Below are positions 30,643 through 61,083 of a DNA stretch of 64,000 bases, one piece after another. Source of the stretch: Lentinus brumalis (Eukaryota; Basidiomycota; Agaricomycetes; Polyporales; Polyporaceae); assembly GCA_001792895.1 (NCBI GenBank), contig MARA01000007.1:496001-560000 (forward strand), read 5' to 3'. A program made the position numbers and the translations under genes. Position 1 is the first letter of the stretch, and every line of letters starts with the position of its first letter. A model generated the notes under the pieces. That model searched no databases, was not told where the DNA came from, and worked only from the letters and a program-made list of their open reading frames with translations.

Positions 30643-31596
30643 CACGACGTGCAGATATAGATCTCGGGTGTCAGGACATGCATGGGACATTCGTCAGGTG
30701 TCTATCATTTCCGGGTCAATTGACGGGAATTACCGAGTCCGGGAATTGTGACATAACCCACACATATCTAGGACGGTGACATGTAAGCCAGAAAATGCTA
30801 CCACCTCAAGGTGCCGACAATGTCGGTGACATTACAAAGACATCCCACATGTCACAAGCATTTCCGGGACCAGGACATTCATCGGACAGGTGGGATTATC
30901 GAGACATTTCTTGGTTCCCAGCCTCAGCATTACCTAAACGTTCACTGAAAGGAGACAGTTTGCAGAAACGCAGCGTATCAGGGAATCATTCCAGAAACAT
31001 TTCCGAGACAAGGACATCTTGCAAATCCCTAACCCGGACATCTCGAGGGCATCCATTTCGGGACATGTAACATATCATGGCTCGTGGAATGACCGGGCCA
31101 TTCATGCCATCTATATACGCGCCTTCGCCCGCTCTCCCGCCCCCGCCAAAGCCGTCCCGCCGCCCGCCGCCCGCCCCGCCCTCGCTCTCACCCGCCCCGC
31201 CCTCGCTCGCACCCGCCCCGCCCTCGCTCGCACCCGCCCCGCCCTCGCTCTCACCCGCCTCGCCCTCGCTCGCACCCACTCCGCCCTCGCTCGCACCCAC
31301 TCCGCCCTCGCCCTCACCCGCCCCGCCCTCGCTCGCACCCGCCCCGCCCTCGCTCGCACCCACTCCGCCCTCGCTCTCACCCGCCCCGCCCTCGCCGGCT
31401 TTGCTGGCGCTGCCGCCGCATCGACTCCTACTTGCACCGCCGCTCGCCCGTGTCATATTTCCAAGTGTCTGCAGCATGGGGTGAGTCGTGCATGGAGGCA
31501 GAAGTTCAGTCGCGCTCGCGCTCACTTGAACTCATCGTACATCGTGTCTGCAGCATGGGGTGAGTCGTGCATGGAGGCAGAAGTTCAGTCGCACTC
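30643..31596 (+). repeat. Left terminal inverted repeat of the giant element (954 bp)
   Basis: Pairs with 60130-61083 in inverse orientation; the one mismatch I noticed is T for A near 30814. The outer ~430 bp carry many copies of a GGACAT/GACATT-like word in both orientations, as expected for subterminal transposase-binding sites. The inner part holds a 21-bp GC-rich tandem array and ends with two copies of a ~70-bp unit that includes the 3' end of the HPD gene found at the right terminus. Confidence 0.85.
31171..31395 (+). repeat. 21-bp GC-rich tandem repeat, left copy
   Basis: Ten full copies plus a partial of a unit resembling CCGCCCCGCCCTCGCTCGCA plus C, with variants (CTCAC, CCACTCC). 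All six frames are open because of composition; the Pro/Ala or Gly/Glu-rich translations should not be taken as proteins. Confidence 0.9.
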
Positions 31597-31720
31597 CTCT
31601 CACCCGCCCCGCCCTCGCTCGCACCCGCCCCGCCCTCGCCGGCTTTGCTGGCGCTGCCGCCGCATCGACTCCTGCTTGCACCGCCGCTCGCGACGCTGGC
31701 GTGTGCTGGCAAGCTCCTCG

Positions 31721-32431
31721 TAGACGAGTCACACAGAGCACGCCCACGCCACTCGAGCCGTGACGATGGCGAGCGACAAAGAGCACGGAGTGACGGTGAG
31801 CCCGGGCCCATCTGCCAGGCTTGCTCCGCGGAGCATCTCTATGCGCATTGTCGCTCGGCGACGGGCGTACCGACAGACGCGCTTTGGCCCCAACGGTGAG
31901 CCTCGCAGAGCTCTGGAGGGCTGTCCGGAGCTTGCTTAACAAACTTGCAGAAGCTCCAGGCGTCGCCATTCCGCGATCCTGGTGCGACGCGCTGGATGCC
32001 TGCCGCAACGCGCCGCGAAAACCAGGGACAGATTGGTCGCCGGCGGCCTGTGCGACAAACAGCATCGGCGAGCCACCCGGAGCACGATCTCCAGGTTCTG
32101 CCGGCCTCGCTACAGGTAGCACCTCCGTGCTCTTTGTTCCTCGGTCAGCCGGCAGAGAGCACAGCCGAAGTCCGTCCGAGCTTTATGGCGAGCTCTGGTG
32201 AGCTACGAAGGGCTCACCGAGGCTCGCCGAAGCACCGGCCGCTCTCCGGGTCACGTCCTAAGCAACACCGGTGCGCTCTATGTCGCTCGCCGCCGCCACA
32301 TCCGGCGCGACAAGGCGCCACCGCCGAGCCTCGGCCGTGACAATGGCGAGCGGTGAGAGCACAGAGCACAGCAGAGCGTCCTTCAAGCTCGCAGACGCAA
32401 GGCGTCGCTCCTCCAGCCCGCTCGAAGCAGC
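31721..32431 (+). repeat. Left inner inverted repeat block
   Basis: Pairs with 58832-59545 in inverse orientation (coordinate sum 91263-91266, one 3-bp indel near 31871), with a few mismatches toward the inner end. It is separated from the terminal repeat by 124 bp that partly duplicate the GC-rich array. It contains short direct repeats such as GAGCGACAAAGAGCACGGAG and GTGAGAGCACAGAGCAC. No gene is needed to explain its open frames. Confidence 0.85.
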
Positions 32432-32739
32432 ACCGGCGCGCGCACTCTCTGTTCCTTTTTGCTCTTCGCCGCCATAGCCTGCGCCGACCGAGGCGACTCA
32501 GGCGAGTGATCGCCCAGGCCCAGCTTCAACTCGCGCCGGCCGTGAAAATAGTGAGCAGCGAAGAGCTCTGCAGGGCTACACGCCGCCCGTGTAGTCTGCA
32601 AAACAAACTGCAGGAAGCCATGCATATAGGACCTCACCGTGTGGTGCTTGCAACGCTCGACCTATCCGGCCGCGCGCAACCTGGGACGGTACAACAGAAC
32701 ATTCATATATTTGTATGATCAACTCTGTAAAATTGTGTG
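32432..32739. other. Spacer between inner repeat and transposase 3' end
   Basis: No gene seen; presumably holds the 3' untranslated region and terminator of the minus-strand transposase. Confidence 0.4.
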
Positions 32740-35700
32740 TCAGCCATCTGCCCGAACAGGGAGTTGTGGACTGACCCTGTCTAATGATCTCACAACCATG
32801 CACGGTTCTCCAATCTCCTCGGGAGTGTACGCCAAACCAGCGAAGTGAGCGATGATGTCGTTCAGTCGGATAACGCGAGGAGTCGCGTCAAACGCGTCGT
32901 AGTAGAGCTTGGCGTTCAGGCTGTCATATGCGCGATAGGGATCATGGAGCTCGTGCTCCTTTGAGAGCGGTCGGAACTCGCTCACGACGACGAAGGGTTC
33001 AATCGAAGTCTTCTGTCCTTCAAGACGCCGATGGTAGAAGATATGTTCGATCCTCCCTGCGCCCGTGAGTTGTGACGTCCCGTCAATCTTGTACGTCACC
33101 AGAGAGTTCCGATCCCCCGTCGCGAACTGCACGCCGTCGTGAGTAATATTGTTGACAAACTGCCCTTGGGTAGGCAAGCTTGGAAGTCCTCGTGTAGAGC
33201 TGCGCGTGCCATACGCAGATGAAAATCGAGGCGGACCGTTGAAATTGACCAAGGAGAGTAGTGGATCGTAAACTGTAGGAGGCAATGGTTGCTCGGTGCT
33301 CTCGTCGTACTTGGCCTGAGCGTCTTGTCCGGCATAGAGAAATTCGAAAGAAAGGACATCTGTTACTCGAATGCCACGCGTGAGCTCGCTGAACGTTTTG
33401 CGAAAGCTCTCTAGCCATTTCTGGTACACTGGGAGGCTGGGCCAATCCACTGATCTCATGATCCATCGCAGAGATGCTCCCATATAGAAGTAGCGGATGA
33501 ACGTCATGGGTATCTCACCTGGATCAATGTCAGCGCACAGCAACAGACAGTAGAATTGATCACTGACTGGGTTTGTGGTTGGTCTTCAACCTTTGAAGCA
33601 TACCGTTGAAGCGTTCGAAGGGGAATCCCCACCAACCATGTACGGGGCCAAAGAGCTCCAAGCATCGCGTTAAGTGGAGCGAAAGGTGGTGATTGGGAAC
33701 CAGAGGACGATCGAAGATGGTCCGCAAGCCTGTCAGGTAGGCGAGCATGTGCCTGTCATATTCCGCAGCGCGAGAAGCAGACATAGACCTGCGAGTTGCG
33801 AGGTCGACCGCAGTGACGAGGTGGAGGAAGTTCTCGAGAACCTCGCGCTCAGGCTCTGTTGCTCCAACCCTACCCCACAGCCGAGTCAAGGTGATAACAA
33901 GATGAACAGTGCAGAGGGTACGCCACTGATCAGCTTTCAACTTGCCATGACTGGCGCGACCGATGTCCGACGGCGGCTTTTCCAACCAGCTTGGAACGAC
34001 GATGTTCGCAATGTCTTCCCGTACTCGCTGCACCACCTGCTGCGTGAAGACGTCGTACTTGCCCATGCCTGAAGGAGGGGGGAGATCGGGGAGATGGTAA
34101 CATGTGGTGTCTTCAGGGAGTGGATCTGGCAGTAGAACGTGTGCAGCGATGACCTCTGCGGACATGTGTTCGGTCTGAGGTTGAGGATCAGTCAGGGAAC
34201 GGACAACGCCTTCAGTGAATCACTCACCCATTTCATCAGGAGATCGACGATATCACCCTTCTTCGGCTCAGCGCCGAGCGTCACGACCTTGTTGAACCGA
34301 GCGACAGCGAGCAAGTAGTCGCGTCGTATGTTGTTCAGTGCAGGCCTAGCGCGTCGTGCGAGAGCGTTTCGAACGGCACAGAGAAATCCCCATTGCTCGT
34401 CCGAGTCGTGAGAGTTCCGTTTCTGTTTGTTCTCCTTCTCCTCCCCACAATCGGGAGACGAAACACCTCCATGCAGTGATGTCTGAGTTCTCCGAGGAAA
34501 AGATTGTGCATGGAATCGACAAGCGCGAACGTCGTCGGGTCCCAGTAGTCCAATCGAAGGAGTTCTGACCAGCGTAGTCCGTGCAACTTGAACATATCGT
34601 CGCGCGCCGTCTGTGTAGAAGCGTCCCGCCATTGGCAGGCGAGGTCGTAATGTTCGTCCCATGTCCGGCCGGGAGGCCAGGCAGAACGCTCAACCGACGA
34701 CAGATCTGACTTCCGTAGGCGACAAAATGAGCAGAAGGCGTCTGCACCATGCCCTGCGAAACCAGCTGTCTTGCGCAAGGCCGGCAGATCACATACAAGG
34801 GGTATGACCGCAGCACGAACGAGACGACCTGTCTCCTTTCGGAGAGCCGTGCGTTTGAGATACACGCCGCGACGCCATAGTTCAAGCAACTCGTCGACCA
34901 GGGGTGCGAGGAGATGGTTCAGCTGATGCTTCGACGGCTCCCGCTTTCCAGGTATGACTCCAGCAAGGTAGATGTTCTCGGGGCGGAAACGTAGATGAGG
35001 TGGCAGGTTCAGGCACGCCATGTAGATCGCGCCCACCGAGTGTGACTTTCCCGCACTCTTGTTCCCATGTGGGTTGAACCAGTCGATGAACAGACTGAAG
35101 ACGAGATGAACGGAGCCGTTTGTCTGGACGGAGAACAGGGTTTGGCGGTCGGGTCCGAGAAACTGTCTGATGCACGGAGACTCCATGATGTCATGGTAGA
35201 CTCCGCTGTCGGCCGTGCTCAACTCCCAAGACTTCTCCAGCAGTCGCTCCAGCTCGACGCGCATGAAGAGGTCGCTAAGCCAGGACTTCAAGCTGCGGTA
35301 TGGGAAAGACATGATAGGGTCGTAAACGACGCGAGGTCGGTCACCCTTCCGCTGCGGCTCGAGTGTCTTCTTAATCACGATTTTCGCGCCACAAGGCGGC
35401 CTGCCGGGTAGGTCGACGTGTGTGCAATGATGGGGATAGGCGTCGCGCGGACGATCCTTGTCAGGAGCGTAGATGGCGAAGCAATTGGGGCAGGCCGCAT
35501 ATTCCTTGATGTCTGGTTCGAGACGGAGTTTGTTCAGGACAGCCCTGAGGTTGGACGGGACCTCGTCGAGGACCGATTGCCCACTCCTCAGTGCAGAAAC
35601 CCCGGTATGGGCTGTGAGGACGCCAAATATGACGACCTGGAGGGTCGAAAGGATGAAGTCGGCTTGGAGGTATGAGACGGAAGCCAGAGTGTGCAGCAGA

Positions 35701-36747
35701 GTGACCATCAGCAACGCGGAAAGGATGTGGGTCGACATGGTGCGGTCGTCATGTTGGAAGAGGCGACCTGATATCGTTACGAACGTTCAAAACGCAAGAT
35801 GAGACGGTGATATAACAAGCAACTTACGCGGAGACGAAGGCACAGGGTCGGCTATACCACCACCAATCCCCTCCAACCACAGCCCAGCGTCCGAAGCCTT
35901 CTCGCGGACCCATGCTCTGGCCTCTAACCTCTCCAGCCGAGAGACTTCGCTTTCCAAGTTTCGCACAAGTTTCGCCTGATAGTTGTCCGCGTTCGCGCAG
36001 CCCACGGCAGATAGACCGCGTAGACGGCCAAGGCTTCTGCTCAGCCACGCTCTGTAGGAGAGGAATTCGGCAGTCTCGCGATCTTGTATATCCAGCAGGC
36101 CAGGAGGATCCTCAGCACTAACAGGTCTGGAAGCGAACACCAGCTTGATAGAGTCGGGCACCAGCCGTGACCGAAGGGCCAGGCCAGACTCGTCAGCGCC
36201 CAACTCTCTCATTCGGCTCGTGAATGTGTGTGTCTGCAAGGGTTTTCTAGCACAGAGAGCTTGGGATCGGATAAGATAACGTACCTCTGCACTGTGAGAC
36301 GGATGCTCTGCCGGAGCACGCCCGCTCGAGCTTGATAGTTGCTGGGCCCGGGCCCGTGGCATTGGCGACTCAGACGAGGGCACCTAAGTGGGGTGAGCAT
36401 GCCATACACGGCAACGGTCGGACACTCACGGTCGTTGGTTCACTCGTGCCTCGCTCCTGTCGATTGGGTACATCGCGAGAGCGGACGGGGAGGCTTCCTG
36501 GGGGCTTGGGCGTATGTTGCATTGTCCCGAGGAGAATTGCGCTTTCTTCTGGACCAAGTGTACCAGTCGCATCCGCGCTCACTTCTTCTCCACGAGCGGC
36601 CAAGCGTTCAGCTAACCGTTGTGCTTCTTGCTGAGTCTTATGCTGTTTGACAATCCTGACGTCGACTTCCCGGCCTTGACGCCATACGCCGTCCTTAGAC
36701 CTGTGGACAAACCCGATACATTCGGGGCAAAAACAGATGCCCTTCAT
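32740..36747 (-). CDS. tnp2-like (CACTA/EnSpm) transposase, apparently intact, 1,234 aa
   Basis: Exons (minus): 36430-36747, 36285-36383, 35828-36233, 34467-35767, 34228-34422, 33568-34174, 32740-33518; the sum is exactly 1,235 codons. The N-terminus has a Cys motif (CFCPECIGF) and a charged linker. The central part has AACPNCFAIYAPDK, DWFNPHGNKSAGKSHSVGAIY, AVIPLVCDLPALRKTAGFAG, AFCSFCRLRKSDL and LVDSMHNLFLGELRHHC, the tnp2 signature of basidiomycete CACTA elements. The C-terminal part has PVHGWWGFPFERFNGMLQRL, as in the domain following tnp2. It would bind the element ends and catalyse excision and insertion. The 44-bp intron 34423-34466 has a weak GTGTTT donor; intron 36234-36284 is stop-free. 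It reads toward the left end. Confidence 0.9.
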
Positions 36748-37269: not shown

Positions 37270-38530
37270 CTACCAAGCGATCAAGCAGGTGTGCAAACAT
37301 AAAGCGGCATGCGCGAACACGTCGACACGTCGATGTAGCAGGACGTGCCCTGCCCGTGTCCTGCCTCGCAGCTCACAGTCTGTTCGAGTCCGCCATAGCT
37401 GTGCCCCCCCAGGGTGCTGCTCCTGCGACTTCTCCTCGCGACTTGCGCCAGGACAACAAGTACGCTCCACCTCCGCGAAGCCGTAAGACAAAGACGACGG
37501 TATCGGACACGTGAATGCTGGGAATCCCAAATGCATGTCAGCAAACGCCCTCATCATCCACCGCGCCAACTGTACTCACGTTTCGCGCCCGAGTGCGAGT
37601 TCATGTGCGCCGCCAGCCCGCTCGGTCGGGGGAACATCTTCAGACAAATCGTGCACTGGTGCATCTTCGACTTCTTCTGCGGCGGCCGCGCACGCTCGTG
37701 CCCGCCCTCGGACGGCGTGACCGGCGAGTGGTCGTTGTCGCCCTGCGGATCCGGACTGCGCGCAGCCTGGCGCGCCGCATCGTCGAGGCCGACCGCAGAC
37801 GCCTCGTACGCTGCCGCGCGCCCCCACTCCCTGCCTGCGGCGTGGTGGTGGTGCTCAAAGTCGCGCTCCTCGTTCGCGTGCGCGGAGCGATACGGCAGGC
37901 GCTGCACGTCGCTCGCGAGGCGGACGGCAGGCTGCTCTCCGAGTCGTCGTCGTAGTCGCCCTCGTCGAACACGAGCCCGGGGACAGACGACGGGCTGATC
38001 GGGTACGGCACCGACACCGAGTCCATCGAGTCGCGCCGCATCGGGACGGGGTACGGCGCGGACGCGGAGCGCGGCGAGTGCACGTCGATCAGGGACGCGG
38101 CGTCGGACGAAGAGAGGTGCGGGTACGGCAACGGCGGCGCGTAGTGTGCGTGGTTGTGCGGCGGCGCAGGGTACGACGCGGGCGAGCCGCCGGGCGTGGC
38201 GGGGAAGCGGGCTGGCGCGCCTGGGCTGTACAGGTGGTGCTCGCCGCGGCCGGGGAGGTACTGCTCGGGCATGCTGAAGCTCGTGGGCCCGGGCGGGGGC
38301 GAGCGGGACTGGCGGTGCTTCTTGAGTCTGCGGCCAAACTCGAGGGGGACGTTGAAGCAGATGTTGCGTTCGGCGTCGCGCAGCGTCGACCAGGCGGACT
38401 CGTGCACGCTGGGGGCGCTGTTGACGTACGTGCGCTCGCAGGAGTACTGCTCCGCGCGGGACGAGCGACAAGCGACAGCAAAAAGATTGACACACCCAAA
38501 CGTGAAGAGACATCCACTATGTAGAGACAT
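37270..38530 (-). CDS. C2H2 zinc-finger protein (possible transcription factor), structure uncertain
   Basis: The N-terminal part reads YSCERTYVNSAPSVHESAWS and FGRRLKKHRQ, then a long Pro/Ser/His-rich region (PPGPTSFSMPEQYLPG, SAPYPVPMRRDS) and an acidic stretch (DEGDYDDDSESS). The frame then shifts near 37945, either by a 41-bp GTGTTC...CAG intron or by a frameshift, into PSEGGHERARPPQKKSKMHQ and one good C2H2 finger (CTICLKMFPRPSGLAAHMNSH). A GTGAGT donor follows, and the next exon starts FTCPIPS, where a second finger is expected but its second cysteine and histidines are missing. It may be a decaying or alternatively spliced DNA-binding protein. It is cargo inside the element, on the same strand as the transposase. 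Confidence 0.6.
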
Positions 38531-39032
38531 ACTGCGACGAGGGGCTGGTACACTACACTCGGGATGGGGGACACCACGCCAGACCAGTCAACTGGGGACC
38601 TACAAACGTACACGTCAGCAGTAGTGAGGGGGAGCGGCGGGCACATAACGTCGGACTCACCTGCTCATACCCATCCACCGCGCGTCCCACCTTGCCGTAC
38701 AAGCCGCTGCCCACCTCGATTACCAAACCAGTCAGAGGTCAGAGAGCGGGCATGCCGAGAGTGGGAGAGGACTCACTGTCCACCTGTGGACGCATCTGGT
38801 AACCATCCTTCAGTACGTATACTTCTGTGATGCACCTCACTCCAGCCTTGTGTCATTGCGTCGCCTGCCACCCTCTCTACAGACATCAAGGTCATTGCAA
38901 TCTCAGGGCTAGCTCACTGATGACCTACCGCTCCGGTTTGTTCGCGCTGATCCTCGATACCGGTCAATATCAGTCGGGGTCTCATAAAAGGACCACTTAC
39001 ATCATGTCGTCGAGCGGATGTCAGTCGAGCGA

Positions 39033-39679: not shown

Positions 39680-39756
39680 CCGCCTCCGGAGCCATCGTCT
39701 GCACAGACATCTCCTCCCCTTGCACCTCCATTTCGTCACAAGCCAGCACTGCCAAG

Positions 39757-40905
39757 ATGCCCACACACGCTGCAGACCTGGTACGTCTTTGGACAGGCTT
39801 ACGAGGGAAGGTATGTTGTTCCACAGCATCCCGAGATGTCCATCCTCTCACCCGCAGGCCTGTGGCGTGTGTAATTAGACCGCAAAGCGCATCCGTTCGC
39901 ATCAGGAACTCCTGGCGTTCTTGCAGGGCGCGGAGAGCAATCCAGACGCGGCTGCCCTCGTAGGCGATCTCACTGTCAATCTCGAGGGCCCGGTTGCGTT
40001 TGATCTCCTCGGGCGGGGCATTGCAAGCTTGACGGGTTTGACGGGGTTGGTCTTGATGCTTAACACCCCGGTACCCCCGGGATTCTTCGACGGACTTGTG
40101 CTGCATGCCTTGGAGTTCTTCAAGACGAACGTTTCCCACCGTGACCTCGTTGGATTCCTCACCGCCACTCCCTCCTTAAAGACGGTTTCTCTAGACTCTT
40201 GTGGGGTACAAGATCATGGCTCGGAGCGCTGCCCTCTCAGCGCTGTCAAACTCAAGGATGTGATGACCTTGGAAGTCCCCTCGACTTGCGTAGTGGGGTT
40301 AGCGCACGATGCGCTTCTGCGGCTCACCATAGACGGCCAACCTCCCTCCCTCAGCGTCCCAGCAGTTTTGCGGGCGTTACCTGTCCCCCTCGCATCCCTT
40401 CTATATCTGACCGTCGATTTCCTTCCGGAAGACTACGATATCCTCGAGAAAGTCACTTCGGCAGCGCCCATGTTGGAGTCACTGAAGCTAACTGAACGGG
40501 CTCATATTTCGGTGAGCAGATTCAATCGTGGCATGGATTTGTCTCTGATGATCTGTACAGCGACGAGAGGCACATGCTCGTCGAGCATGGAACGACACCA
40601 ACAAGTGGTATCAACGGCTTTTGTTGCTCCCAAATCTGCAACAGTTTGCTTTGTGCACGGCCGCAAGCGTCGTGGAGATTCCCGCTGATGTAGAGGCGGA
40701 ACGTCGTCTGTTGTATGCTTGGGTCAGCGGTGTCCGTCCGCGATCACGCCAGCATCTGCCATCACACCCTTCACTGTCTTATATTCGCGTCTGGTATCGG
40801 CGTCGCATGCATGACAATGGTGTCCTTACCCACTGGTCACGGGATGGAGAGATCTGGCGCAACATCGTCAGTATCGTAGGTCCCCCGCGGGACTCCGTGT
40901 TTTAG
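39757..40905 (+). CDS. LRR-like protein of F-box-associated type, 334 aa (cargo)
   Basis: Exons 39757-39810, 39906-40511 and 40561-40905; GT-AG and phase 0 throughout. After MPTHAADL the protein reads VGDLTVNLEGPVAFDLL, LTGLTGLVLML, LKTVSLDSCGV, LKDVMTLEVPS, LLRLTIDGQPP and MLESLKLTERAH, an irregular leucine-rich solenoid. The C-terminal part ends with HPSLSYIRVWYR and IWRNIVSI. No F-box is visible at the N-terminus; similar solenoids are common C-terminal halves of polypore F-box proteins, so this may be a lone recognition domain. It is cargo in the giant element; function unknown. Confidence 0.7.
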
Positions 40906-48370: not shown

Positions 48371-50634
48371 ATGACTCGCCCTCTTCAGCCCATACCTATA
48401 CTACCTGTTGTTCTACAAGGGACGAAGCCCGGTCTGTTGGATCCTACCCAACCTGGGCGACTCTTGCAAAGTTCCAGTTCCACGCTGCACTTCGCCGTCT
48501 TTGACCCCAGCACCGCTACATACAATCCTTTCAGCTCTCAGCCCGCTAATCAGCCTCAGGGCCTCAGTCATCCTGCGCGGATCGTCATCGAGACCACGCC
48601 CAACCAACCGACTCGATGGCGCTTTGTGACCAGCGCAGAACTTGGTCCTGGAGTGGAGAGTGAAGGCTCGTGGCCTAGGGTCGTACTACTTTGCGGGTGA
48701 GTTGCACTCAAGATCCACGTTTCTTTTCGCTTCGCTCATATGAATATTGCTGCCAGAAAACGTCTTATACTCTTGCAGGATCAGTGGGATATCTATAAGC
48801 TCGACCCCGAATACGACTGTTACGTTCCTCCTTCACCCCACCATCCTGTAATAGCCCACAAAGCGCAACCTGCTCCTACTGGGAAGCGCGATTGTCCTCC
48901 TCCAGGGATCGTGAAGGACGAACCCTTACGCAAGAAGCCACGTTCTTCATCGGGTGCAGAGGGCGAGGAGACATGGGAAGCGGGTGAGATGTCGGAAGGT
49001 GCGGGTGTGCGCCAAGAGGATCACAACTCACAGGTGCGCATGTTGCCATCTACGCACATAAGCGATATGTCTAACGGTCGGTCTCTGCAGAAGGACTGGA
49101 AGTCGGAGCAGCGGCCGGAACCTATGCCAGGTGCCGAGAGCATTCCTCGCCCCGTAGAGGAACCTTCAGGCCCTCCTCAACCACTGCGAGAGGGTGACCA
49201 ACGTCAGAACGACTCACCGTCGGCCCACGCACGTGCCGTTACACCGGACATTATTGATCTCACCATGGACGACGACGACGACGACGACCAAGCAGGGCCA
49301 GCGCAACCTTCCACCGCGTCGCGGCACACTGCATCTCCTGTGTCGTGCCAACGTCCGCAGACTCAGTCTACGTCTCCTCACCCAGCACCTATCCAACCTG
49401 AACACCAGCCTCTGCCGTCTCAGTTCGCACAGCCCGACGCTACAATTCCGCCTCCACATGAGCAGCACGAGGACATCACTGCTCGACCGCCCCCGCAGCC
49501 CCCGCAGCCCCCGCAGCCCCCGCAGCCCCCGCAGCCCCCGCAGCCCCCGCATCCCCCGCATCCCCCGCAGCCTGCAGCCCCGAGCCATCTGTGCCGTTCG
49601 CATTCGGACAGCCCGCACCCGCACCCGCTCAGCCGGAACCTAGTCAGGAACCCACTCAGACTGCGGCCGCTCATGCTGAGCCGCAACGTCATACAAAGCG
49701 TAAAGGTGGATATTCTCGTATGTTCAGTGACATCTCGCTCATAACATAAACAGAGTCACGGGAGTCCCCATACCTTCAGGAAGAAGGTGAACGGCCGGAA
49801 GATGAACGGCCGTTCATGGAACGGGCAGGCAAGCGCCTGAGGACGCAGCCGCCTAAACCATACCCTTTTCCGCCTTTCACACCTCCGCCGAAGCCTCCCA
49901 GTCGCTTTCGCGCGAAGGTTGACATTCTCTCCGAACGGATGCGTGAAGACACTGCGCGCCGTGGTGAGAGACTCCGTGACACGGTGTTCGCGGAAGGGGC
50001 AGCAGGGGCAGTCCCAGACACAATGGATGTGGACGAAACCGCACTCCCGTTCGCTGATGATGGGCCGGATGGTGTCGCTACACGCGCGGCCGCTGAGGAA
50101 GAACGCCTCCGGGCTGCTGAAAAAGAGCGACGTCGTCGAGCTGCCGCTGCTGAACGCGAGGCGCATCAGCTCAAGCGCGTGAATTGGCGCAAGGCGCAAC
50201 GCAAGCGGTGGTTGTTTGCCTTCTGGTCCGGAGATCGTGCATTGGAACGTTACCTCGAGCTCGGCCACCAGTTCGACATCGCCCTGTCGGACGACTACAA
50301 GTACGATCCGATCGAACTCGATCTCGTTCCTTGGCCCATTCTTCGCCATCCCGTGAAGCAGACGTGGGATGACATCTCGTGGGAGTCCGTCGAAGACTTC
50401 TTCGACGAGGTGCAACCGCGCATGTCTGCGTCCGCGTTCAAGAAGCTTGTCTTCGAGAGCCAGAATCGCTTCCATCCAGACCGTTGGTCCGCGCGCCGTC
50501 TGTTGCAAGGCATGGAGGCAGAACAACGCCAGGAATGGATTGAGAAGTTAACGATTGTGACACAGGCTATCTCACCGATAGTTGCGGCCGTTCGCAAAGG
50601 AAAGTGGGTGAGGACTCGCCGATTGGCCCAGTAG
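48371..50634 (+). CDS. Large cargo protein with SUMO-interacting-like motif and C-terminal HPD domain; frame break in a repeat
   Basis: Exons 48371-48696, 48757-49033, 49091-49717, 49754-50634; the intron 49034-49090 is a stop-free 57 bp. The middle is Pro/Gln-rich and holds PDIIDLTMDDDDDDD, a textbook SUMO-interacting motif pattern (hydrophobic core plus acidic run). A CCCCCGCAG repeat (about 49490-49570) follows, after which the sensible frame changes (EPSVPFAFGQPA and TKRKGG), so one or two bases are gained or lost there. The last exon has an acidic/basic coiled segment (EEERLRAAEKERRRRAAAAE), then a folded domain ending NRFHPDRWSARRLLQ. HPD with flanking helices resembles a degenerate J-domain and recurs in the gene at 59727. 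Role unknown. Confidence 0.7.
49490..49572 (+). repeat. 9-bp minisatellite (CCCCCGCAG) in coding sequence
   Basis: About eight tandem units coding Pro-Pro-Gln or Ala-Ala-Pro depending on frame; the place where the host gene's frame changes. Confidence 0.85.
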
Positions 50635-50772
50635 GTAGCACCGCCACCATAGTTGTAGAGGAGCTAGTATCCCGGTTATACAATTTCACTTCGCTGCTCC
50701 CTTCGTACTTCAACTGTGGATCCTACACCCTTCCTCGGCCAGCAACACGTCTCCCGTCTACCGTCGCGCGTA

Positions 50773-52235
50773 ATGCCTCGAAAGTATATGAAAGCTCGAA
50801 GCCTCAATCATGAACACGACGCGCCGATTGCCGCAGTCGCTTTCAGCCCCAGTGGCTCGTTGATCGCCACTGCTGGCCTAGACTGCAAGGTTGCGCTTTG
50901 GCGGGTTGAGGACGGTGGCCTCATGCACGTATGGGAGGGTAGTAGCGCGGTGCTATCATTGGTGTGGATTGGAGACAACGAGGAGACCATCGTGTGCGGC
51001 ATGCGCGATGGCAACCTGGTGTTTCTATGCTTTACGCCGGTACGTCCCTCCGCACCGTGAAATATCTGCCCGCTGAACTCCCGCTAGCGACTTCTCACTG
51101 TCCAAGGGCAGTGCGCTCATAAGTATCCCCTGGAATGTCTTGCTGTCTCTGGCTCTCGCGTCGCATCTGGAGCGCACAAGGAGGTCAAGTTGTGGGACTG
51201 GTACCGCAGCGGTCAAGACAACGGTACGCGCGTTGATACCATGCGCTGTGTTCCCAGACATTGACGCATTTCAGTCAATCGTTTTGATCTGGTGAAAGCA
51301 CTAACGGACCCTTCGATGAGCTCCCATAACAAACACCAAGAGGTCATCGTGACCAGTCTCCATTGGACCTCCCACCGTCGTCGTCTACTCATGGTGACGT
51401 ACATGCACCATGGGATACAGTAAGTGTGAATGCTCTTGTTCAGTCACACTTTCAGTTCTCATTTCTCGCTGGTGTAGCTTCTTTGATGCGCTTACTTTCG
51501 AGCATGTGCGCACCATGTCGCTCCCTGGTATGATGTACGTCCGTGGTCTGTTCGGCTCTCATATGCTTCTCATTCACGAATCTCAGTGCTGGTGCATCGC
51601 TCGCGCCCAACAGCGCGTACCTTGCCGTCTCGAACATGTTCAAGGGATTCGATATATACAAACTGCCTTCCGAGGAGCCGCTGGTCTCATTCGAGCACAT
51701 CGATGAGCGCGATGCTGCTCCATCTTTACCGATTCCTCTCAAGTTCGTCCACGGCGGTCAAGCCCTCGTCGGTGGAAGCATGTCGGGTAAGGTTGGTCTG
51801 TGGCATATCCCTCTCGGTGTCATGCAAGTGCTGCAACTGCCGAGTAAGTGCTGGCGCCTCTCGTAGCTGCAGCTGAGCTAACCTATCTCAGGAGGATTCG
51901 AGGTAATCGCTCTGGACGTAAGATACTTTCGCTGCTTGACCGGCTCAGCTGATAAAGCTTAGGGACCATAGGAGCACGCAGCTGTCTTGGGCGAGCCAAG
52001 CACCCATCGCTTCCTCATTGCGACTGGCATCGCAAATGAGGAAGGTAAATCATATTGCATCATATGGGAAGGCGAGGAGCTCGCAGCGAAGGAGCACCTT
52101 GACGGCATAGTGCGCGAGGACGCTCTCGAAGAACTCGATGCCATGGATGCCGCACCCGAGTATCCGCTCGCCACCGCGCCTCCGGCCGCACACTCCACGT
52201 CGGTGCGTCCTATATCCACGTTTCCGAACGAATAG
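50773..52235 (+). CDS. WD40-repeat protein, 383 aa (cargo)
   Basis: Seven exons: 50773-51039, 51088-51223, 51275-51419, 51478-51534, 51587-51843, 51892-51917, 51972-52235, all GT-AG, 384 codons in total. WD-type blades are visible: HDAPIAAVAFSPSGSLIATA followed by DCKVALWRV; AVLSLVWIGDNEETIVCGM; LECLAVSGSRVASGAHKEVKLWDWY; IVTSLHWTSHRRRLL; FVHGGQALVGGSMSGKVGLWHI. The repeats form one, perhaps incomplete, beta-propeller, and a ~60-residue Ala/Glu-rich tail follows. Such fungal proteins are usually scaffolds. No NACHT or other effector domain is attached. It lies in the middle of the cargo array, same strand as its neighbours. Confidence 0.85.
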
Positions 52236-52946
52236 AGAGTGACGCCCACTGCTGCAGCTTCCGGTGAAGCTCCTATGGGTGGCTGTCGCTGCATTGACTA
52301 TTGCTTATGTTCTGAATTTCAATGTCATTTTGCTGGCTCTCGAGAACGCGTCATCTTGAATTTTAGATTCTTTTGCAGTAATGTAGTGCGCAGTTTTCCC
52401 TCGTCTCCCATCACCACGGGCAAACCACCGCTTGCCTCGTTCGCTCCCACACGCTCGCTTTTCGTCCCGCCCACCTCTCCCTTCTCTCTCGCGCTAGTTC
52501 GTAATACCTAGACCTGTAGCCCAACGAGTAGTGTCAGCATGCAATACACGCAGCCATCCCCGCTCACCGATGCCGCTCTATGCGGCTGCTACGACGCACG
52601 TTCGCAGGATAACCGCGGCGCGACGCCGCGTCCGTGTCCGGCTCTGCCGGTCCCAGCCCAACCCCTCCGTCCTGCGTCCGCGTCGTACAGTCCGCGTCCA
52701 GCAGGAGCACCAGACGAAGCTGGACGAGCTATGTAACTGTGGATGTCAAAGCTGTGCGGCTTCCGGCAGCTTCCGGCCCGGGAGCGTTCGGCGCTTTCTC
52801 AGATCCTTTGTCTTGTAGTCTCTTGCAGCATTGTCCTCCACGGTTCTTTGTATATAACGACGCGACCATGCGCCGTCAATATTTCAGTCCTCACCACCAC
52901 CACCACCACCACCGCTGCCGCCGCCGCCGCCACCACCACCACCACC
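52236..52946. other. Spacer with CAC/CCG trinucleotide repeats
   Basis: A 65-codon open frame (52539-52736) is unrecognised. Just before the next gene lie CAC and CCG trinucleotide repeats (about 52885-52946) whose His/Arg-rich reading frame I do not take as coding. Confidence 0.5.
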
Positions 52947-54256
52947 ATGTACACGTTCTCAGCATCTCGACCAGTTGAAGCGGATGGAGAAGTCACTCGT
53001 CTCGTATTCAGACCAGCGTGCGCAGCAGACGTTGTGGACGTAGCACCTACTGTGACCAGGCTTTTCTATCCGGAGTAAGCTGTTCCATCATCCAACGAAC
53101 GAGCTGATATGCTAACTTCTCTGTCAACAGCGGTGTCCGCGTCAAACACGAAGACCGCCTCGACCTGCCTTTACCCGCCTCCGTACAGAAGCCTCGGTCG
53201 GTCATGCGTACACCTTCTACTTGTTCCCCATCCCCTCCCCTGCTACCCGAGCGAGTACGTCCCGAGCAGCTTCTGTGGCTCCTTCTCTCGGCTTCGAGTC
53301 ATCTCCTTCGCCTATACCACGCCCTCGCGCCAGCAGCCGTGTTCGTACTTCCGCTCCACGCCTCACACCGAAGGCATCCACATCTACCAGGGGTCCCGAT
53401 CCCGAATATCCACCTGGCAACTTTGGCGATTCCTTGCCCACCCGAGTGACTCGGTCTTTGTCGCGCTCGTCTTCTCGTGTCTCGCTTCGCGATGACATAT
53501 CCAGTGCCCCTTCCACCCGTGCCTCTAGCCCACCGCCGGTGAGTCAATTGCTTTCGCGCTGAATTTACCTTCAATGCCGATTCGTTGTTACGGCTGCAGA
53601 TGCCAGTCGAACATCTTGAGCGCATCGAGCAGAAGGGCTCGCCCACAGATGAAGAGAAGCGTAGAGGCATTGTTCCGCCGACCCTCTGGTATTACGAGTT
53701 CTTCGGCACAGAAGAGCTCTCCGAGCCGCCGTCGGCAATTGCGAAACGTCCGGACCTTCAGTTCCACGACATCTTCTGCTATCATGTCCGCGGGCATCTT
53801 GACCGTGACCCGATGGTTTGGGTGTGGCTCAACGCGGCCACTGGCAGCAACCGCGGCCACTGGAAGCCGATCGTCAAAGGGTATGCTCGCCCTGCGGATA
53901 ATCGGCGGCTCAAGTTTTCTGGTACGCCCAAGCGACCGGCCTACGTCACCGAAGAATGGTTCCGCACGCTTACTCGCAAGGAGCGCAGGAAGGCCGAGGC
54001 GGAGCAGGCCACAGCCAAGAGGAGGGGCAAGGAGAAAGGTCAGCTCATGGTTTACACTTCGCGCACCCCCTCTCTAACATCGTATACCAGCTTTCTCTGC
54101 ATGACACGCATACCAGATCCAGCGAGCCCCCGTGCGCCCGACTACTCAGCGACTACTCAGCGACTACTTAGATTGGCTCTGCTCCTCTCCGTTCCCTTCC
54201 TTGTCCCGTTCCTCCTTGTACCCTCCGCGCCTGCCTCTTCCAAGTGCTTCCTGTAG
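52947..54256 (+). CDS. Unknown basic cargo protein, about 376 aa
   Basis: Exons 52947-53074, 53131-53207, 53270-53538 and 53600-54256; phases fit (377 codons). The second intron (53208-53269) is chosen because it links the N-terminal part (EVTRLVFRPACAADVVDVAP) to a Ser/Pro/Arg-rich linker (SPSPIPRPRASS, TRSLSRSSSRVSLRDDIS). The last exon contains a compact domain (WYYEFFGTEELSEPPSA, FHDIFCYHVRGHLDRDPMVW, RGHWKPIVKGYARP, PAYVTEEWFRTLTRKERRK) and a lysine-rich stretch. Reading on gives a hydrophobic C-terminus (LALLLSVPFLVPFLLVP); alternatively a GTCAGC donor near 54037 splices to a stop near 54101. Family not recognised. Confidence 0.6.
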
Positions 54257-54458: not shown

Positions 54459-55559
54459 ATGGCAAAGAACACCTCTAACTCGAGCCCGGACAATCCTTAT
54501 GCTGCCCATCACTGGGTATTCGAGGAGGGAGCCCAGGAAGGTGAGTAAACCGGGCGGCTACTAAGTCGGGCAGAGACTCACACACCTCCCGGTGTTCATG
54601 AAGCCCGTCGACACGTCCAATTCGCATCCCCTAACTCGAAGCGTCCTACTACATCCTCAACTCCCGCGAAAGGCGCCACGACAGGTTCCAGTACTGCTCT
54701 CAGGCGTGAGCGTGGTTGTCGGTGGCACACAATCCTAGCCCTGTGCATCCTTATCATCCTGTCGCTCGCCATGTTCACCGATCTGCAACATTCATCGCTC
54801 GTCTTATACCTGCGCAGCGAAGCACTTCTGCGCTTCCAACCCGAGTTCCCCCTCCCTTTCCGCTTGATCGACTCCCCCATCCCTTCTAACATCGTCAACT
54901 ATATCGAGCTGTCCATCAATAACGCCCTACTCAGCCAGCTAGGTCGTCGGGACTATGCATTGGCCTTGGATGGAGCACATATATCTCCCGGCCTCACCTC
55001 TCCAGGCGTGGGCGCTGGCGCAACCCACGGCACCTCCAAGAGCAGCTGCTACGCTCATCCTGCTGAAGTCGTGCTGCGCGACAACATGCATGGCGGCCGC
55101 TGCTGGCTTATTCCGGGAAGACAAGGCCAGATCGGTGTATTCATGCTCGAGGTCATCTATCCCACTCACATCACTGTCGATCACGTCCCTATGCAAGTCG
55201 CTCGGCTCATCGAGTCAGACATACGACAAGCACCTCGGTCGATCCGAGTCTGGGGTGTGGTCGAGGGGCGACAGAACGAGGAGCGTTACGCTCTCTATCG
55301 AGAGGATCATCCGATACCGGAAACCTTGCCGCAAGGTGGTCCTCCTCTTACTTCCGGACAGAACTTCCTCCCAATCGCCGAGTTCCAATATGACATCTAC
55401 GCCGGGCCGTATAGCCAGACGTTTCCTGTCCACGACTACATGCGGAATAGTCGACTCGCCATCGCTGTGTACGTGTTTGAGGTGCTAGACAACTGGGGAG
55501 CTGAATCAACGTGTATATACCGCGTACGGGTGCACGGCGAAGAAGACACTCGGGGATGA
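54459..55559 (+). CDS. SUN-domain membrane protein (cargo)
   Basis: Exon 1 54459-54540 and exon 2 to 55559; the intron is either 33 bp (ending 54573) or, more typically, 63 bp (ending 54603), both in frame, giving 355 or 345 aa. The N-terminus is polar and nucleoplasm-like. One transmembrane helix (TILALCILIILSLAMF) is followed by a Sad1/UNC-84 domain: RRDYALALDGAHI, GGRCWLIPGRQGQIGVFM, PTHITVDHVPMQV, APRSIRVWGVVEG, QTFPVHDY, NWGAESTCIYRVRVHGE. SUN proteins sit in the inner nuclear membrane and bind KASH partners in the perinuclear space to link nucleus and cytoskeleton. The coiled coil before the SUN domain is short. Finding it inside a transposon-bounded interval is unusual. Confidence 0.88.
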
Positions 55560-55892: not shown

Positions 55893-58701
55893 ATGGAACA
55901 CCAGCCACCTCACGTGCAACAATACGCACCACCTCACGCGCAACCACCTCACGCGCCACCACCTCACGCGCCACCACCTCACGCGCCACCGCATGCGAGC
56001 ACGCCGTATCACTGGAACTCTCCGCCAAGTCACACGTACGTAGGCCCCCCGTCTCAACCCCAAGAGTTTGGGTACTACACCGTCCATCCGCACACCCAAT
56101 ATCACACCGCGAGTGTTCATACGCAGCCTGTTCAGCCAGCGTCCCAGGCGCACTATCCTCCAGCCCCCCCCTTGCATTCGTTCACCTCACCTTACGCCTA
56201 TCAGCACCATCCGGGACCTGCTGTGCACCCACTGCACGTTCAGCCAGCCCCCGCGACAGTTTACGTTCAACAGGGGTACCAATATCCCGTTCCGCACCAT
56301 CCTCCGGCATCTGCGCACCCACCCTCTGCCTACATGCCAGAGCATGTCCAACCACGCGTGCCGCCGCAACCCTCTCGGCCGTCAGCGGCGCCCGTCCCAC
56401 AGACTTCTTTCACGTTTCAGGCCCCATGGGTCCCACCATCTGAGCGTGATGATGAGCCTACCGCAGCGACATCTGCGAAGCGTCGTTCAACTACACGGGC
56501 CAGTGTATCCCGCTCAGGCTCAACCCGTTCAAAGACGTCAGCAAAGCCGAAGGAACCCCAGCTCCCTCCTCCGTCGTTGGCGAAGCCAAATGAGCCTGAT
56601 CTCTCGCCGAAGCCTTCGACGGCACAGCCGAAGCGACCAATCCCACCCAGAGCTACGGTTGAGTCACTGCTCTCCGACGGATTCGTACCGCCTCTCTCGG
56701 CCATCGGCAGCGAGCTCGTGCGTATCTTCGCATTGTGTCTTGTCCGCACGGTGCCTGATCCTGGTCCAGCAGTCGGCGAGCGACGCAGTGGTCTTCTTCA
56801 ACGCTCTACCTCTGCACGACAAGAAAGAGATTCTCCGAGCCTATCTGCAAGGCTCGACCGACCAGAACCATCTCGTGGATGACGCGGACCGGACGGTGAG
56901 TAGCATGCGCTCATTCCCGAAGGTATCGTAATGATGACCGTGAACGATGACCGTGGTACCTCTGCAGACCTTCTTCAATGTAGGCTCCACGAAGCAGACG
57001 CACGTCTCAGGAACGCGTTCGATCCCTGATCTGAATGATCAGCCTGACGCCTCAGCTTCCACTTTGCGTCCGAAGACTGCCCGTTTCCAGACGACCGTTG
57101 AGGACGCTGATTCGGTACGTCTGAATACTCAGGTGTTAGGGTACTGCTCACTCCGCCTTACAGGACTCTGATGATGTCACCGCTCGGCTTGGAGATGATC
57201 CCAAAGGAAAGGTAGACAAAGACGTCTAGTTGATTGGTTACTCAGGATTCTGATGGTCGCATTTGACATAGCAACGGAGCAACGAGCCTAAGGGCACAGC
57301 ACCATCGTTCCCTGCCCGACCGAGCGCTACGTTCACTCCGCGGCCAATGCCATCGTCTGGAGGCAGCAACCACTTCAACGTGTGTCTTCTGGATGCCGTA
57401 CATGATATCCAGGAGAAAGTAGATCGCAGGCTGGCCGATCTGCAGTAAGCATGTACACGCTCGCTGCTCTGGAGCTGGACTTAGCATTCATCAGGACGTC
57501 CATACAACATATTCAACACAAGCTCTCGGAGTCTCTTGCACCCGAGATGCCTGAGCGAAGAACTCCGAGATCGGTGCCGAAGAAAGCTCGCAACCGGTCC
57601 ACTGCCGCAAGGATACAGAAGGCTAACGCCGGGGAAGACTTCACGGAACAGTTGGAGGCAGTGACCTCTGACGAAGAGGGAGGAACCCCGCCCCTGCAAC
57701 ATCGAAGACGCCAAAACCGGCATCAACTCCACAAGCCCGAGCCCAGTTCAATGAAGCGGTGGAGCGCGCACATCTCAAGAGGCTAGGGGTACGCCATCCG
57801 TTAGTCTTGTGTAAATTGTCGACTAACAACGTGTGGTCAGACGTGCGTGCGCATTCATCTGGATGAGGAGATACTCGACATAAAGAACGTGAAGGAGCTC
57901 CCCGGCAAGTTTCCTGTCCTTACCGAGCTTCAGATCAAGGCGTACACCGACTCCAAGGAACCCGTGTTCACGAGTCGCGAAACCTTCTTCATGGACTTCT
58001 CCCGCCCACTGAAGTCATTCGTACTCAACAAGATGGCCGCGGACTTCTTCATCGAGGACTTCCTTGCTGCCGTCGCAGGCGGCTCCTACCAGGACCCACC
58101 CATTCCAGCTCGCTACTTGACCAAAGTTCAGATCTTCGCCGCCCTCGAAGGTCACGTTGACCACCTTCGTTCGGAGTTCGCCAGGCTCACGAAGGCTGCA
58201 ACACCCGAGAACATCCAGAAACAAAAGGATCGCGAGGCGTTAGCTGCCGCAGCCTCGCGGCAGAGAAATACCTTGCACGCGCGTCGGGATACTGTCACGG
58301 ATCCCGCTTTCGGGTTGCAGCGACATGCTGCCATTGTCTCCAAGCTGCGACGGGTCCATATTAGCCCCGATGTCCCAGTGCACGTGGAGAAGGGTGTTCG
58401 CTGCCGGGTCTTCCACATCACTGAGGCGATGTGGCAGAGCCGGAAGTACAAGGACTTCATGCGTGGACTGGACAAGATCCGCGGGTCCAGCAAGCAGGGG
58501 AAGGGCGGGAACTTACCCCGACAACGAATTGAGCTTGCGGACCCGCAGTGGGTTGATACACCAGCACCAGTTGGGTTGTGGAAGAACTGCTACGACGACG
58601 ATTGGCTCGGCAAGCAGACTCTGTACACGCTTAACAGTCTCCAGATCATCGACGAGGACTACGACTTTTCCTTGGATCAGCGAATGGAGGAGTTTGCTTG
58701 A
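55893..58701 (+). CDS. Large Pro/His-rich cargo protein with C-terminal domain, about 808 aa
   Basis: Exons: 55893-56717, 56770-56895, 56968-57114, 57164-57211, 57272-57444, 57495-57660, 57708-57788, 57841-58701; the phases fit and sum to 809 codons. The N-terminal ~190 residues are His/Pro/Tyr-rich, with QPPHAPPPHAPPPHAPP repeats. Next come a Ser/Lys-rich region (RSGSTRSKTSAKPKEP), a short helical motif (ESLLSDGFVPPLSAI then VVFFNALPLHDKKEILRAYL) and a predicted coiled coil (VHDIQEKVDRRLADLQTSIQ). The C-terminal domain (FPVLTELQIKAYTD ... RQRNTLHARRDT ... GLWKNCYDDDWL) resembles, from memory, a domain widespread in agaricomycete repeat regions. The intron 57661-57707 (47 bp) is chosen to keep the frame; a frameshift is the alternative. 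Confidence 0.65.
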
Positions 58702-58831
58702 CTTGGTGGACGGACAGTGTACGTGTAAGTATAGTGTATTCATATGGACTACAGTTGCTACTTCGTGACCCCTGTTATGACCCGGGTACCCGTGAGATGT
58801 TGCAGGTCGTGGCTGCGACAAGCGACAATGA

Positions 58832-59545
58832 GCTGCTTCGAGCGGCCCGGACGAGCGACGCCTTGCTTCTGCGAGCTTGAAGGACGCTCTGCTGTGCTCT
58901 GTGCTCTCACCGCTCGCCATTGTCACGGCCGAGGCTCGGCGGTGGCGCCTTGTCGCGCCGGATGTGGCGGCGGCGAGCGACATAGAGCGCACCGGTGTTG
59001 CTTAGGACGTGACCCGGAGAGCGGCCGGTGCTTCGGCGAGCCTCGGTGAGCCCTTCGTAGCTCACCAGAGCTCGCCATAAAGCTCGGACGGACTTCGGCT
59101 GTGCTCTCTGCCGGCTGACCGAGGAACAAAGAGCACGGAGGTGCTACCTGTAGCGAGGCCGGCAGAACCTGGAGATCGTGCTCCGGGTGGCTCGCCGATG
59201 CTGTTTGTCGCACAGGCCGCCGGCGACCAATCTGTCCCTGGTTTTCGCGGCGCGTTGCGGCAGGCATCCAGCGCGTCGCACCAGGATCGCGGAATGGCGA
59301 CGCCTGGAGCTTCTGCAAGTTTGTTAAGCAAGCTCCGGACAGCCCTCCAGAGCTCTGCGAGGCTCACCGTTGGGGCCAAAGCGCTCTGTCTGTCGGTACG
59401 CCCGTCGCCGAGCGACAATGCGCATAGAGATGCTCCGCGGAGCAAGCCTGGCAGATGGGCCCGAGCTCACCGTCACTCCGTGCTCTTTGTCGCTCGCCAT
59501 CGTCACGGCTCGAGTGGCGTGGGCGTGCTCTGTGTGACTCGTCTA
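58832..59545 (-). repeat. Right inner inverted repeat block
   Basis: Inverse counterpart of 31721-32431 (714 against 711 bp). It begins 130 bp after the stop of the large Pro/His-rich gene and ends 181 bp before the short HPD gene. Its open frames mirror those of the left copy. Confidence 0.85.
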
Positions 59546-59726
59546 GGGCAGGCGTCGGGCGAGCCGCGTGCTTTGTGCTTTGTCTCTATATTTCTTTGTT
59601 AGCGTTAAAGTCGCTCTGCTCCTTGACCTTGCAACACCATACCCGAACGCCACGCCACTCCCTTTTTCACGTCTTCACCTCACGTCTTCAGTCCTCACGT
59701 CTATCAGTCCTCACGTCTTCAGTAAC

Positions 59727-60131
59727 ATGTCTGTCAACAATCGTCAGGAGCTAGACTGCCAGTGGACGGTAGATCTTGCTATCGAGCGGTACGAGAAGTT
59801 GGCGGAGCACTTCGATGTGGCACAGTTCACGCAGCGGGCGCCGGAGTTCGAGGAGATCCCTTGGCCGACCCTCTTCTCACCTGATGTACTCCATGTCGAA
59901 GGTGTTGGCTGGGATGCTGTCGAGGCGTTCTTTGTTGCTGCCAGGAGCAAGATGTCTGTCGCAGACTACAGGACACTGGTCAAGAGCACGTTGATACGCT
60001 TCCATCCTGATAAATGGGCGGCTCGCAACATCCTTCTTCACATTCGGGACGAAGGATACAAGGAGGCGTTGGCTCGGGCATCCCTGAGAGTCACGCAAGA
60101 AGTGTCGGCGATTTACGATGAGTTCAAGTGA
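59727..60131 (+). CDS. Short HPD-domain protein, 134 aa (cargo at the right terminus)
   Basis: Single exon, ATG 59727 to TGA 60131. The domain reads CQWTVDLAIERYEKLAEHFD, then EEIPWPTL, WDAVEAFF, KMSVADYRTLVKSTLIRFHP-DKW. It aligns with the C-terminal domain of the gene at 48371-50634 (LERYLELGHQFD, LDLVPWPIL, WESVEDFF, MSASAFKKLVFESQNRFHPD-RW). The HPD tripeptide between two helices recalls the J-domain loop that stimulates Hsp70, but helix order and length are not canonical. The stop codon overlaps the inner boundary of the right terminal repeat (60130), and a second copy of the last codons lies at 60187-60205 inside the repeat. Confidence 0.75.
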   Translation: MSVNNRQELDCQWTVDLAIERYEKLAEHFDVAQFTQRAPEFEEIPWPTLFSPDVLHVEGVGWDAVEAFFVAARSKMSVADYRTLVKSTLIRFHPDKWAARNILLHIRDEGYKEALARASLRVTQEVSAIYDEFK

Positions 60132-61083
60132 GTGCGACTGAACTTCTGCCTCCATGCACGACTCACCCCATGCTGCAGACACGATGTACGATGAGTTCAA
60201 GTGAGCGCGAGCGCGACTGAACTTCTGCCTCCATGCACGACTCACCCCATGCTGCAGACACTTGGAAATATGACACGGGCGAGCGGCGGTGCAAGTAGGA
60301 GTCGATGCGGCGGCAGCGCCAGCAAAGCCGGCGAGGGCGGGGCGGGTGAGAGCGAGGGCGGAGTGGGTGCGAGCGAGGGCGGGGCGGGTGCGAGCGAGGG
60401 CGGGGCGGGTGAGGGCGAGGGCGGAGTGGGTGCGAGCGAGGGCGGAGTGGGTGCGAGCGAGGGCGAGGCGGGTGAGAGCGAGGGCGGGGCGGGTGCGAGC
60501 GAGGGCGGGGCGGGTGCGAGCGAGGGCGGGGCGGGTGAGAGCGAGGGCGGGGCGGGCGGCGGGCGGCGGGACGGCTTTGGCGGGGGCGGGAGAGCGGGCG
60601 AAGGCGCGTATATAGATGGCATGAATGGCCCGGTCATTCCACGAGCCATGATATGTTACATGTCCCGAAATGGATGCCCTCGAGATGTCCGGGTTAGGGA
60701 TTTGCAAGATGTCCTTGTCTCGGAAATGTTTCTGGAATGATTCCCTGATACGCTGCGTTTCTGCAAACTGTCTCCTTTCAGTGAACGTTTAGGTAATGCT
60801 GAGGCTGGGAACCAAGAAATGTCTCGATAATCCCACCTGTCCGATGAATGTCCTGGTCCCGGAAATGCTTGTGACATGTGGGATGTCTTTGTAATGTCAC
60901 CGACATTGTCGGCTCCTTGAGGTGGTAGCATTTTCTGGCTTACATGTCACCGTCCTAGATATGTGTGGGTTATGTCACAATTCCCGGACTCGGTAATTCC
61001 CGTCAATTGACCCGGAAATGATAGACACCTGACGAATGTCCCATGCATGTCCTGACACCCGAGATCTATATCTGCACGTCGTG
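60130..61083 (-). repeat. Right terminal inverted repeat of the giant element (954 bp)
   Basis: Inverse, near-identical counterpart of 30643-31596. It includes the ~73-bp duplicated unit at its inner end, the 21-bp array (60331-60555) and the outer region rich in ATGTCC/AATGTC words. It ends ...CTGCACGTCGTG at 61083, followed by CAT. Confidence 0.85.
60331..60555 (-). repeat. 21-bp GC-rich tandem repeat, right copy
   Basis: Mirror of 31171-31395 with the same order of variant units, as far as the identical translations of both copies show. Confidence 0.9.

What the first reader, a model, noticed from the sequence alone, without database searches (positions are those of the whole stretch)
30643..61083. 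A 30.4-kb CACTA-like transposon that may carry about twelve cargo genes
Near-identical 954-bp inverted repeats sit exactly at both ends, begin with CAC, and are flanked outside by the same CAT triplet. An apparently intact 1,234-aa tnp2-type transposase lies inside. Between transposase and right end are genes for a zinc-finger protein, LRR-like, tail-anchored membrane, SUN, WD40, HPD-domain and several unknown proteins. Known giant fungal cargo elements (Starships) use tyrosine-recombinase captains with DUF3435; no such gene is visible here. A cargo-bearing giant element driven by a DDE-type tnp2 transposase would be a distinct class.
Basis: partly seen in the sequence, partly recalled or inferred. 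Interest (0 to 1): 0.92.

Follow-up and report, generated by a model that had tools for sequence, protein, structure and literature searches.

The report
Giant gene-rich fungal CACTA transposon family
A mushroom-type fungus carries a family of roughly 30-kilobase jumping DNA elements that hold about a dozen genes each, many of them a recurring set that travels with the transposase, including a nuclear-envelope (SUN) protein.

The parts
30640..30642 (.). left copy of the 3-bp target-site duplication, CAT
30643..31596 (+). left terminal inverted repeat, 954 bp, begins CACGACGTGCAG; holds a 21-bp GC-rich minisatellite (31170-31395)
31721..32431 (+). inner inverted repeat, left arm
32719..36747 (-). 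tnp2-type (Transposase_21) DDE transposase gene, several introns; exons upstream of 35738 uncertain
37554..38646 (-). C2H2-like zinc-finger gene (24.9 bits, just under the Pfam cut-off)
39879..40688 (+). LRR-like gene (backbone family; profile support weak)
41557..42404 (+). predicted gene of unknown function, no Pfam match
44122..44986 (-). cargo trio gene 1, distant paralogue of gene 46972-48032, no Pfam match
45525..46541 (+). cargo trio gene 2, unknown
46972..48032 (+). cargo trio gene 3, unknown, no Pfam match
49780..50634 (+). RFHPDRW ('HPD') gene
50770..52359 (+). WD40 protein with predicted C-terminal transmembrane tail (backbone family); start approximate
53600..54256 (+). g53600: unknown protein with predicted C-terminal transmembrane tail (backbone family)
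54549..55559 (+). SUN-domain protein with predicted N-terminal transmembrane helix (backbone family); start not fixed
57451..58701 (+). g57451: unknown protein (backbone family)
58832..59545 (-). inner inverted repeat, right arm
59727..60131 (+). 134-codon RFHPDKW ORF in the 584-bp stretch found only in the right arm
60130..61083 (-). right terminal inverted repeat, 954 bp, ends GTG
61084..61086 (.). right copy of the target-site duplication, CAT

Best explanation
30643-61083 is a complete, probably autonomous member of a family of giant (~30 kb) CACTA/En-Spm transposons. Its tnp2 DDE transposase is inferred to recognise the CAC..GTG inverted ends and their repeats, and to move the whole unit by cut and paste, leaving 3-bp duplications. 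Many of the genes between transposase and right end are a backbone that goes with this group of transposases: LRR-like, WD40 with membrane tail, g53600 with membrane tail, SUN with N-terminal membrane helix, g57451. A module that seems exchangeable (the 44122/45525/46972 trio) and HPD genes are added to it. Shown: ends, duplications, three elements with both ends, recurring gene set and partly conserved order, intact catalytic residues. Inferred: mobility today, autonomy, and that the backbone serves the element. The gene make-up suggests membrane or nuclear-envelope functions.
For: Ends, duplications and sizes of three elements: 30,441 bp CAT; C35:191917-222551, 30,635 bp, AGA, first 540 bp of the repeats identical; C76:219371-249514, 30,144 bp, GAG. 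A fourth, C46:502013-524274, has a 359-bp repeat at 100%; its right flank is repeated elsewhere without the element, and that homology begins exactly at the first flank base. Transposase_21 67 bits, cut-off 28.6. Both D residues and the C2C pair are conserved in 18 of 18 other loci that align there, H652, H656 and E676 in 15 of 15 (a recount without a doubled locus). Within 40 kb of a tnp2 hit (at most 6.1% of the genome), excluding the window: SUN 10 of 16, WD40 8 of 11, LRR-like 8 of 9, g57451 7 of 8, g53600 8 of 10; binomial p 2e-9 to 3e-8. 12 clusters with at least 3 of 5 backbone families, 10 with tnp2; order tnp2-LRR-WD40-g53600-SUN identical in the window, C76, C67 and C46. Tree of 30 tnp2: the 12 cargo-labelled rows are all in one 17-row side with 100/100 support, none among the other 13.
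Against: No empty site: neither flank of the window's element has a second full copy, and no relative is held. No second element with the same ends was found for the three ends searched (window, C35, C46; C76 not searched), so recent copying is not shown. Near-identity of the inverted ends dates homogenisation, not insertion. Two clusters are rearranged (C65, C1:2.60 Mb), four clusters with two or more backbone genes have no tnp2 (C1:25 kb, C61, C78, C115), and 4 of 17 rows of the tnp2 group had no backbone gene found even. On the tree the label needs 4 changes within that group. The hit lists are capped, so counts are lower bounds and the missed hits could lie anywhere. Gene models are home-made, without RNA data.
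Confidence: 0.87

Rival explanations
1. Composite or macro-transposon: two CACTA copies in inverted orientation bracket ordinary host DNA, which they carry once.
For: The inverted arms are unusually long (1.8 and 2.25 kb including the inner pair), as an inverted duplication of one end would give. No further full copy of this end was found in the genome.
Against: No inner end was found. The same gene families recur in other elements with different ends and duplications. Backbone presence follows the transposase group.
Confidence: 0.06
2. The genes are ordinary host gene families that cluster in transposon-rich regions; the ends belong to elements beside them.
For: WD40 and SUN are eukaryotic host domains. 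Six of 16 non-window SUN loci have no tnp2 within 40 kb, and trio gene 46972 has 7 of 10 copies away from tnp2.
Against: Gene order is identical in four clusters. 3-bp duplications flank the whole 30 kb in 3 of 3 elements with both ends present. Of 17 SUN loci only C1:1714761 and C1:2200403 stand without another backbone family nearby.
Confidence: 0.04
3. A virus-like or integrated genome that borrowed a CACTA transposase, after the manner of Teratorn or Maverick elements.
For: A recurring multi-gene backbone with a transposase and membrane proteins.
Against: No polymerase, capsid or packaging domain in the Pfam scans (10, 8 and 4 queries, several queries repeated). No relative of the SUN protein was confirmed in IMG/VR. 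Several genes, g57451 among them, stay without a family or fold.
Confidence: 0.03

Closest known systems
CACTA / En-Spm (CMC) DNA transposons
   Same: CAC..GTG ends, 3-bp duplication, Transposase_21 DDE protein with C2C and H-H motifs, repeats near the ends (family traits in PMC12730594, results part 1, read).
   Different: About 30 kb, inverted repeats of 124 to 954 bp, about a dozen predicted genes and a recurring backbone; the usual En/Spm has 1-2 ORFs (PMC6431247, passage).
Enlarged En/Spm families of the red alga Chondrus crispus (16-20 kb, 4-5 ORFs)
   Same: CACTA families with more ORFs than usual (PMC6431247, passage).
   Different: Smaller; their ORFs were not compared here and are not named in the passage seen.
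Soybean 20.5-kb CACTA Tgmt*
   Same: Very large putative autonomous CACTA element with subterminal repeats (PMC2613891, abstract).
   Different: One large gene giving transposase and TNPA-like products; no multi-gene backbone in the abstract.
Starships
   Same: Giant fungal elements carrying many genes; reported also in a basidiomycete, Tremella fuciformis (PMC13066641, passages).
   Different: Tyrosine-recombinase captain (search listing, passages); here a DDE tnp2 transposase and CAC..GTG inverted ends.
TET+ EnSpm, Plavaka and KDZ transposons of fungi
   Same: Fungal DNA transposons with an accessory gene (PMC12730594, abstract and sections seen).
   Different: The accessory gene described is a TET/JBP dioxygenase; no Plavaka domain hit in the window's element; PlavakaB ends are CATCA..TGATG.

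Membership tests
CACTA/En-Spm superfamily | termini CAC..GTG | tested here: met
   three elements with both ends, plus the right end of C46
CACTA/En-Spm superfamily | 3-bp target-site duplication | tested here: met
   CAT, AGA, GAG: 3 of 3 elements with both ends present; C46 has lost its left end
CACTA/En-Spm superfamily | Transposase_21/tnp2 with DDE, C2C and H-H motifs | tested here: met
   motif definition from PMC12730594
CACTA/En-Spm superfamily | short TIRs with subterminal repeats bound by a TNPA-like protein | tested here: inconclusive
   repeat arrays near the ends are present, but the TIRs are long (124-954 bp); no TNPA search made
CACTA/En-Spm superfamily | transposition activity | not testable with these tools
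   no second strain or relative held
Starship | DUF3435 tyrosine-recombinase captain | tested here: inconclusive
   0 hits in the genome, but the control genomes were silent too
Plavaka | PF18759 transposase domain | tested here: not met
   97 hits in the genome, none within the window's element
Plavaka | ends TGT..ACA or CATCA..TGATG | tested here: not met
   ends are CACGACG..CGTCGTG (Plavaka ends)
SUN-domain proteins (the element's SUN gene) | SUN fold after a membrane helix | tested here: met
SUN-domain proteins (the element's SUN gene) | binds a KASH peptide | not testable with these tools
   H138 is kept in 29 of 32 and Y250 in 30 of 32 rows of the alignment; that these match the KASH pocket is recalled

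The most novel reading that the evidence does not exclude
These elements carry their own nuclear-envelope bridge: a SUN protein plus tail-anchored partners (WD40-TM, g53600-TM), acting like a transposon-encoded LINC complex that places, protects or passes the element (for example between the two nuclei of a dikaryon). They would be a DDE-driven counterpart of Starships in basidiomycetes, with a fixed backbone and swappable cargo.
Probability: 0.2. Interest if true: 0.95.

Novelty: new variant of a known kind. Interest (0 to 1): 0.82.

Why it matters
In the papers that my searches listed, giant gene-carrying elements of fungi were tyrosine-recombinase Starships. A CACTA lineage that moves about 30 kb and a dozen genes by a DDE transposase would give basidiomycetes a second route for moving gene sets. 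It would also explain most of the SUN gene copies in this genome as transposon genes. Because the backbone recurs and the ends are known, the family can be searched for in other polypore genomes, and questions of cargo exchange and transfer between species become directly testable.
Full report
Observation. The window lies at C104:496001-560000 of an unnamed 53.4-Mb assembly. The inverted ends 30643-31596 / 60130-61083 differ at 1 of 954 positions, start CAC, end GTG, and are flanked by CAT on both sides. The terminal 18-mer is found in the window only at the two ends with up to 3 mismatches allowed, against 0.08 expected. The unit is 30,441 bp. Inside the ends a second inverted pair (31721-32431 / 58832-59545) is 98.9% identical, with 5 substitutions and 3 gap columns. 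Counting gap columns as differences, it is more diverged than the outer pair (Fisher p 0.006), so the outer ends were probably homogenised more recently. The right arm holds a 584-bp stretch with a 134-codon ORF that the left arm lacks.

Transposase. The minus-strand gene at 32.7-36.7 kb matches Transposase_21 at 67 bits, cut-off 28.6. Among the other tnp2 loci that align, the two D residues and the C2C pair are conserved in 18 of 18, and H652, H656 and the E of FERFNG in 15 of 15.

Other elements in the same genome. No further full copy of the 954-bp end was found (2 of 10 matches are full), so no close sibling is seen. PF02992 gives 41 hits. Starting from the tnp2 gene on C35 I fetched the DNA beside it and searched for its inverted partner. 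The element is C35:191917-222551, 30,635 bp, ends CACGGCGGGCAAATG../..CATTTGCCCGCCGTG, the first 540 bp of the repeats identical, duplication AGA/AGA. On C76 the ends are at 219371 and 249514: 30,144 bp, CACTACGTGCACC../..GGTGCACGTAGTG, duplication GAG/GAG. On C46 the right end is at 524274 and a 359-bp repeat at 100% lies at 502013-502371, but the left terminal 16 bp are missing. The right flank of that element recurs at 533175 and 541837, and the homology starts exactly at the first flank base, CGC: a boundary confirmed on one side. I looked for ends at four tnp2 loci including the window. Three gave both ends, and 3 of 3 of those have matching 3-bp flanks; by chance each would match 1 time in 64.

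The genes are a backbone. Searches of the own genome with concatenated window proteins and with PF07738 show the same gene families beside other tnp2 genes. Excluding the window, within 40 kb of a tnp2 hit (at most 6.1% of the genome) lie SUN 10 of 16, WD40 8 of 11, LRR-like 8 of 9, g57451 7 of 8 and g53600 8 of 10. The C35 SUN gene was found by the protein search, not by PF07738. Twelve clusters, window included, hold three or more of the five families, and 10 of them hold a tnp2. The order tnp2-LRR-WD40-g53600-SUN is the same in the window, C76, C67 and C46. In C35 a g53600-like frame between WD40 and SUN was seen by eye in a translation. C65 and C1:2.60 Mb are rearranged. The hit lists are capped (39 of 80 and 38 of 110 candidates scored), so counts are lower bounds.

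One transposase group. A tree of the 30 tnp2 loci held (11 of the 41 hits were not held) puts the 12 rows labelled with cargo in a side of 17 rows with 100/100 support, and none among the other 13; the root is at the midpoint, and within the 17 the label needs 4 changes. The label was set. L067, with only one trio-type gene nearby, was not labelled, and L048 (C111) gained a g53600 neighbour afterwards, making 13 of 17. Transposases of the C35, C76 and C46 elements share 39-51% identity with the window's by segment, so the association is old.

Exchangeable cargo. The trio 44122/45525/46972 recurs on C35. Two of its genes are closer to the window's than the backbone is: 45525 at 65% and 46972 at 69%, against 41-44% for SUN and 46-50% for the transposase. 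The third, 44122, is at 43%, no closer than the backbone. Relatives of 45525 and 46972 are on C61 and C70 too. The best reading is that part of the module is exchanged between elements; stronger constraint on two genes is not excluded. Of the non-window copies of 46972, 3 of 10 lie near a tnp2. Genes 44122 and 46972 are distant paralogues (26%, E 2e-8). The HPD family occurs twice in the window, on C65 and on C93.

How it most likely works. The transposase pairs the two ends (long repeats with minisatellites that may act as the subterminal binding sites of CACTA elements), cuts out the whole unit and inserts it with a 3-bp duplication. The backbone's presence with one transposase group suggests that it helps the element, not the host. 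The predicted membrane or nuclear-envelope character of three of the five backbone proteins points to the nuclear envelope or endomembranes as the place of action; this last step is inference. Two negatives matter: nothing here shows movement in living cells, and no empty site was seen.

Novelty. Judged by titles and abstract beginnings, searches of the open-access library listed no paper describing CACTA elements with a SUN/WD40 backbone. The nearest statements found are the 16-20 kb, 4-5-ORF En/Spm families of Chondrus (PMC6431247, passages), the 20.5-kb soybean element (PMC2613891, abstract), early fungal tnp2 hits (PMC1636069, passages) and accessory TET/JBP genes in fungal EnSpm (PMC12730594, abstract and sections). 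Starships are reported in the basidiomycete Tremella fuciformis (PMC13066641, passages), so giant elements as such are not new to basidiomycetes. Two papers that I wanted to check are not held, and no repeat database was searched.

Noticed in passing
window 5000-30000 and 61451-63981: The left flank holds several related predicted genes and ORFs that look like BTB-type proteins; the right flank begins, about 370 bp from the element, a gene that looks like a BAR-domain protein (both resemblances recalled, no profile run).
   Followed up: no
genome-wide: 97 Plavaka-transposase matches in this genome, several with long open frames; a second abundant CACTA-related group whose neighbours were not examined.
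   Followed up: no
C46:524275-543445 (L081, L083, L084): The flank of the C46 element is repeated about every 9 kb at 96% identity, an array that invites study on its own.
   Followed up: partly
C104:948365, C35:262025, C35:318316, C35:995790, C43:529048, C44:13093, C54:159022: Trio gene 46972 has relatives at 46-69% identity here; 6 of these 7 have no tnp2 hit within 40 kb. Perhaps other or decayed elements.
   Followed up: no
C1:25466-34333: LRR, WD40, g53600 and SUN genes in backbone order without a detected tnp2: a possible decayed element or one with a diverged transposase.
   Followed up: no
C93:406240-406611: A 44% relative of the 134-codon HPD ORF outside any recognised cluster.
   Followed up: no
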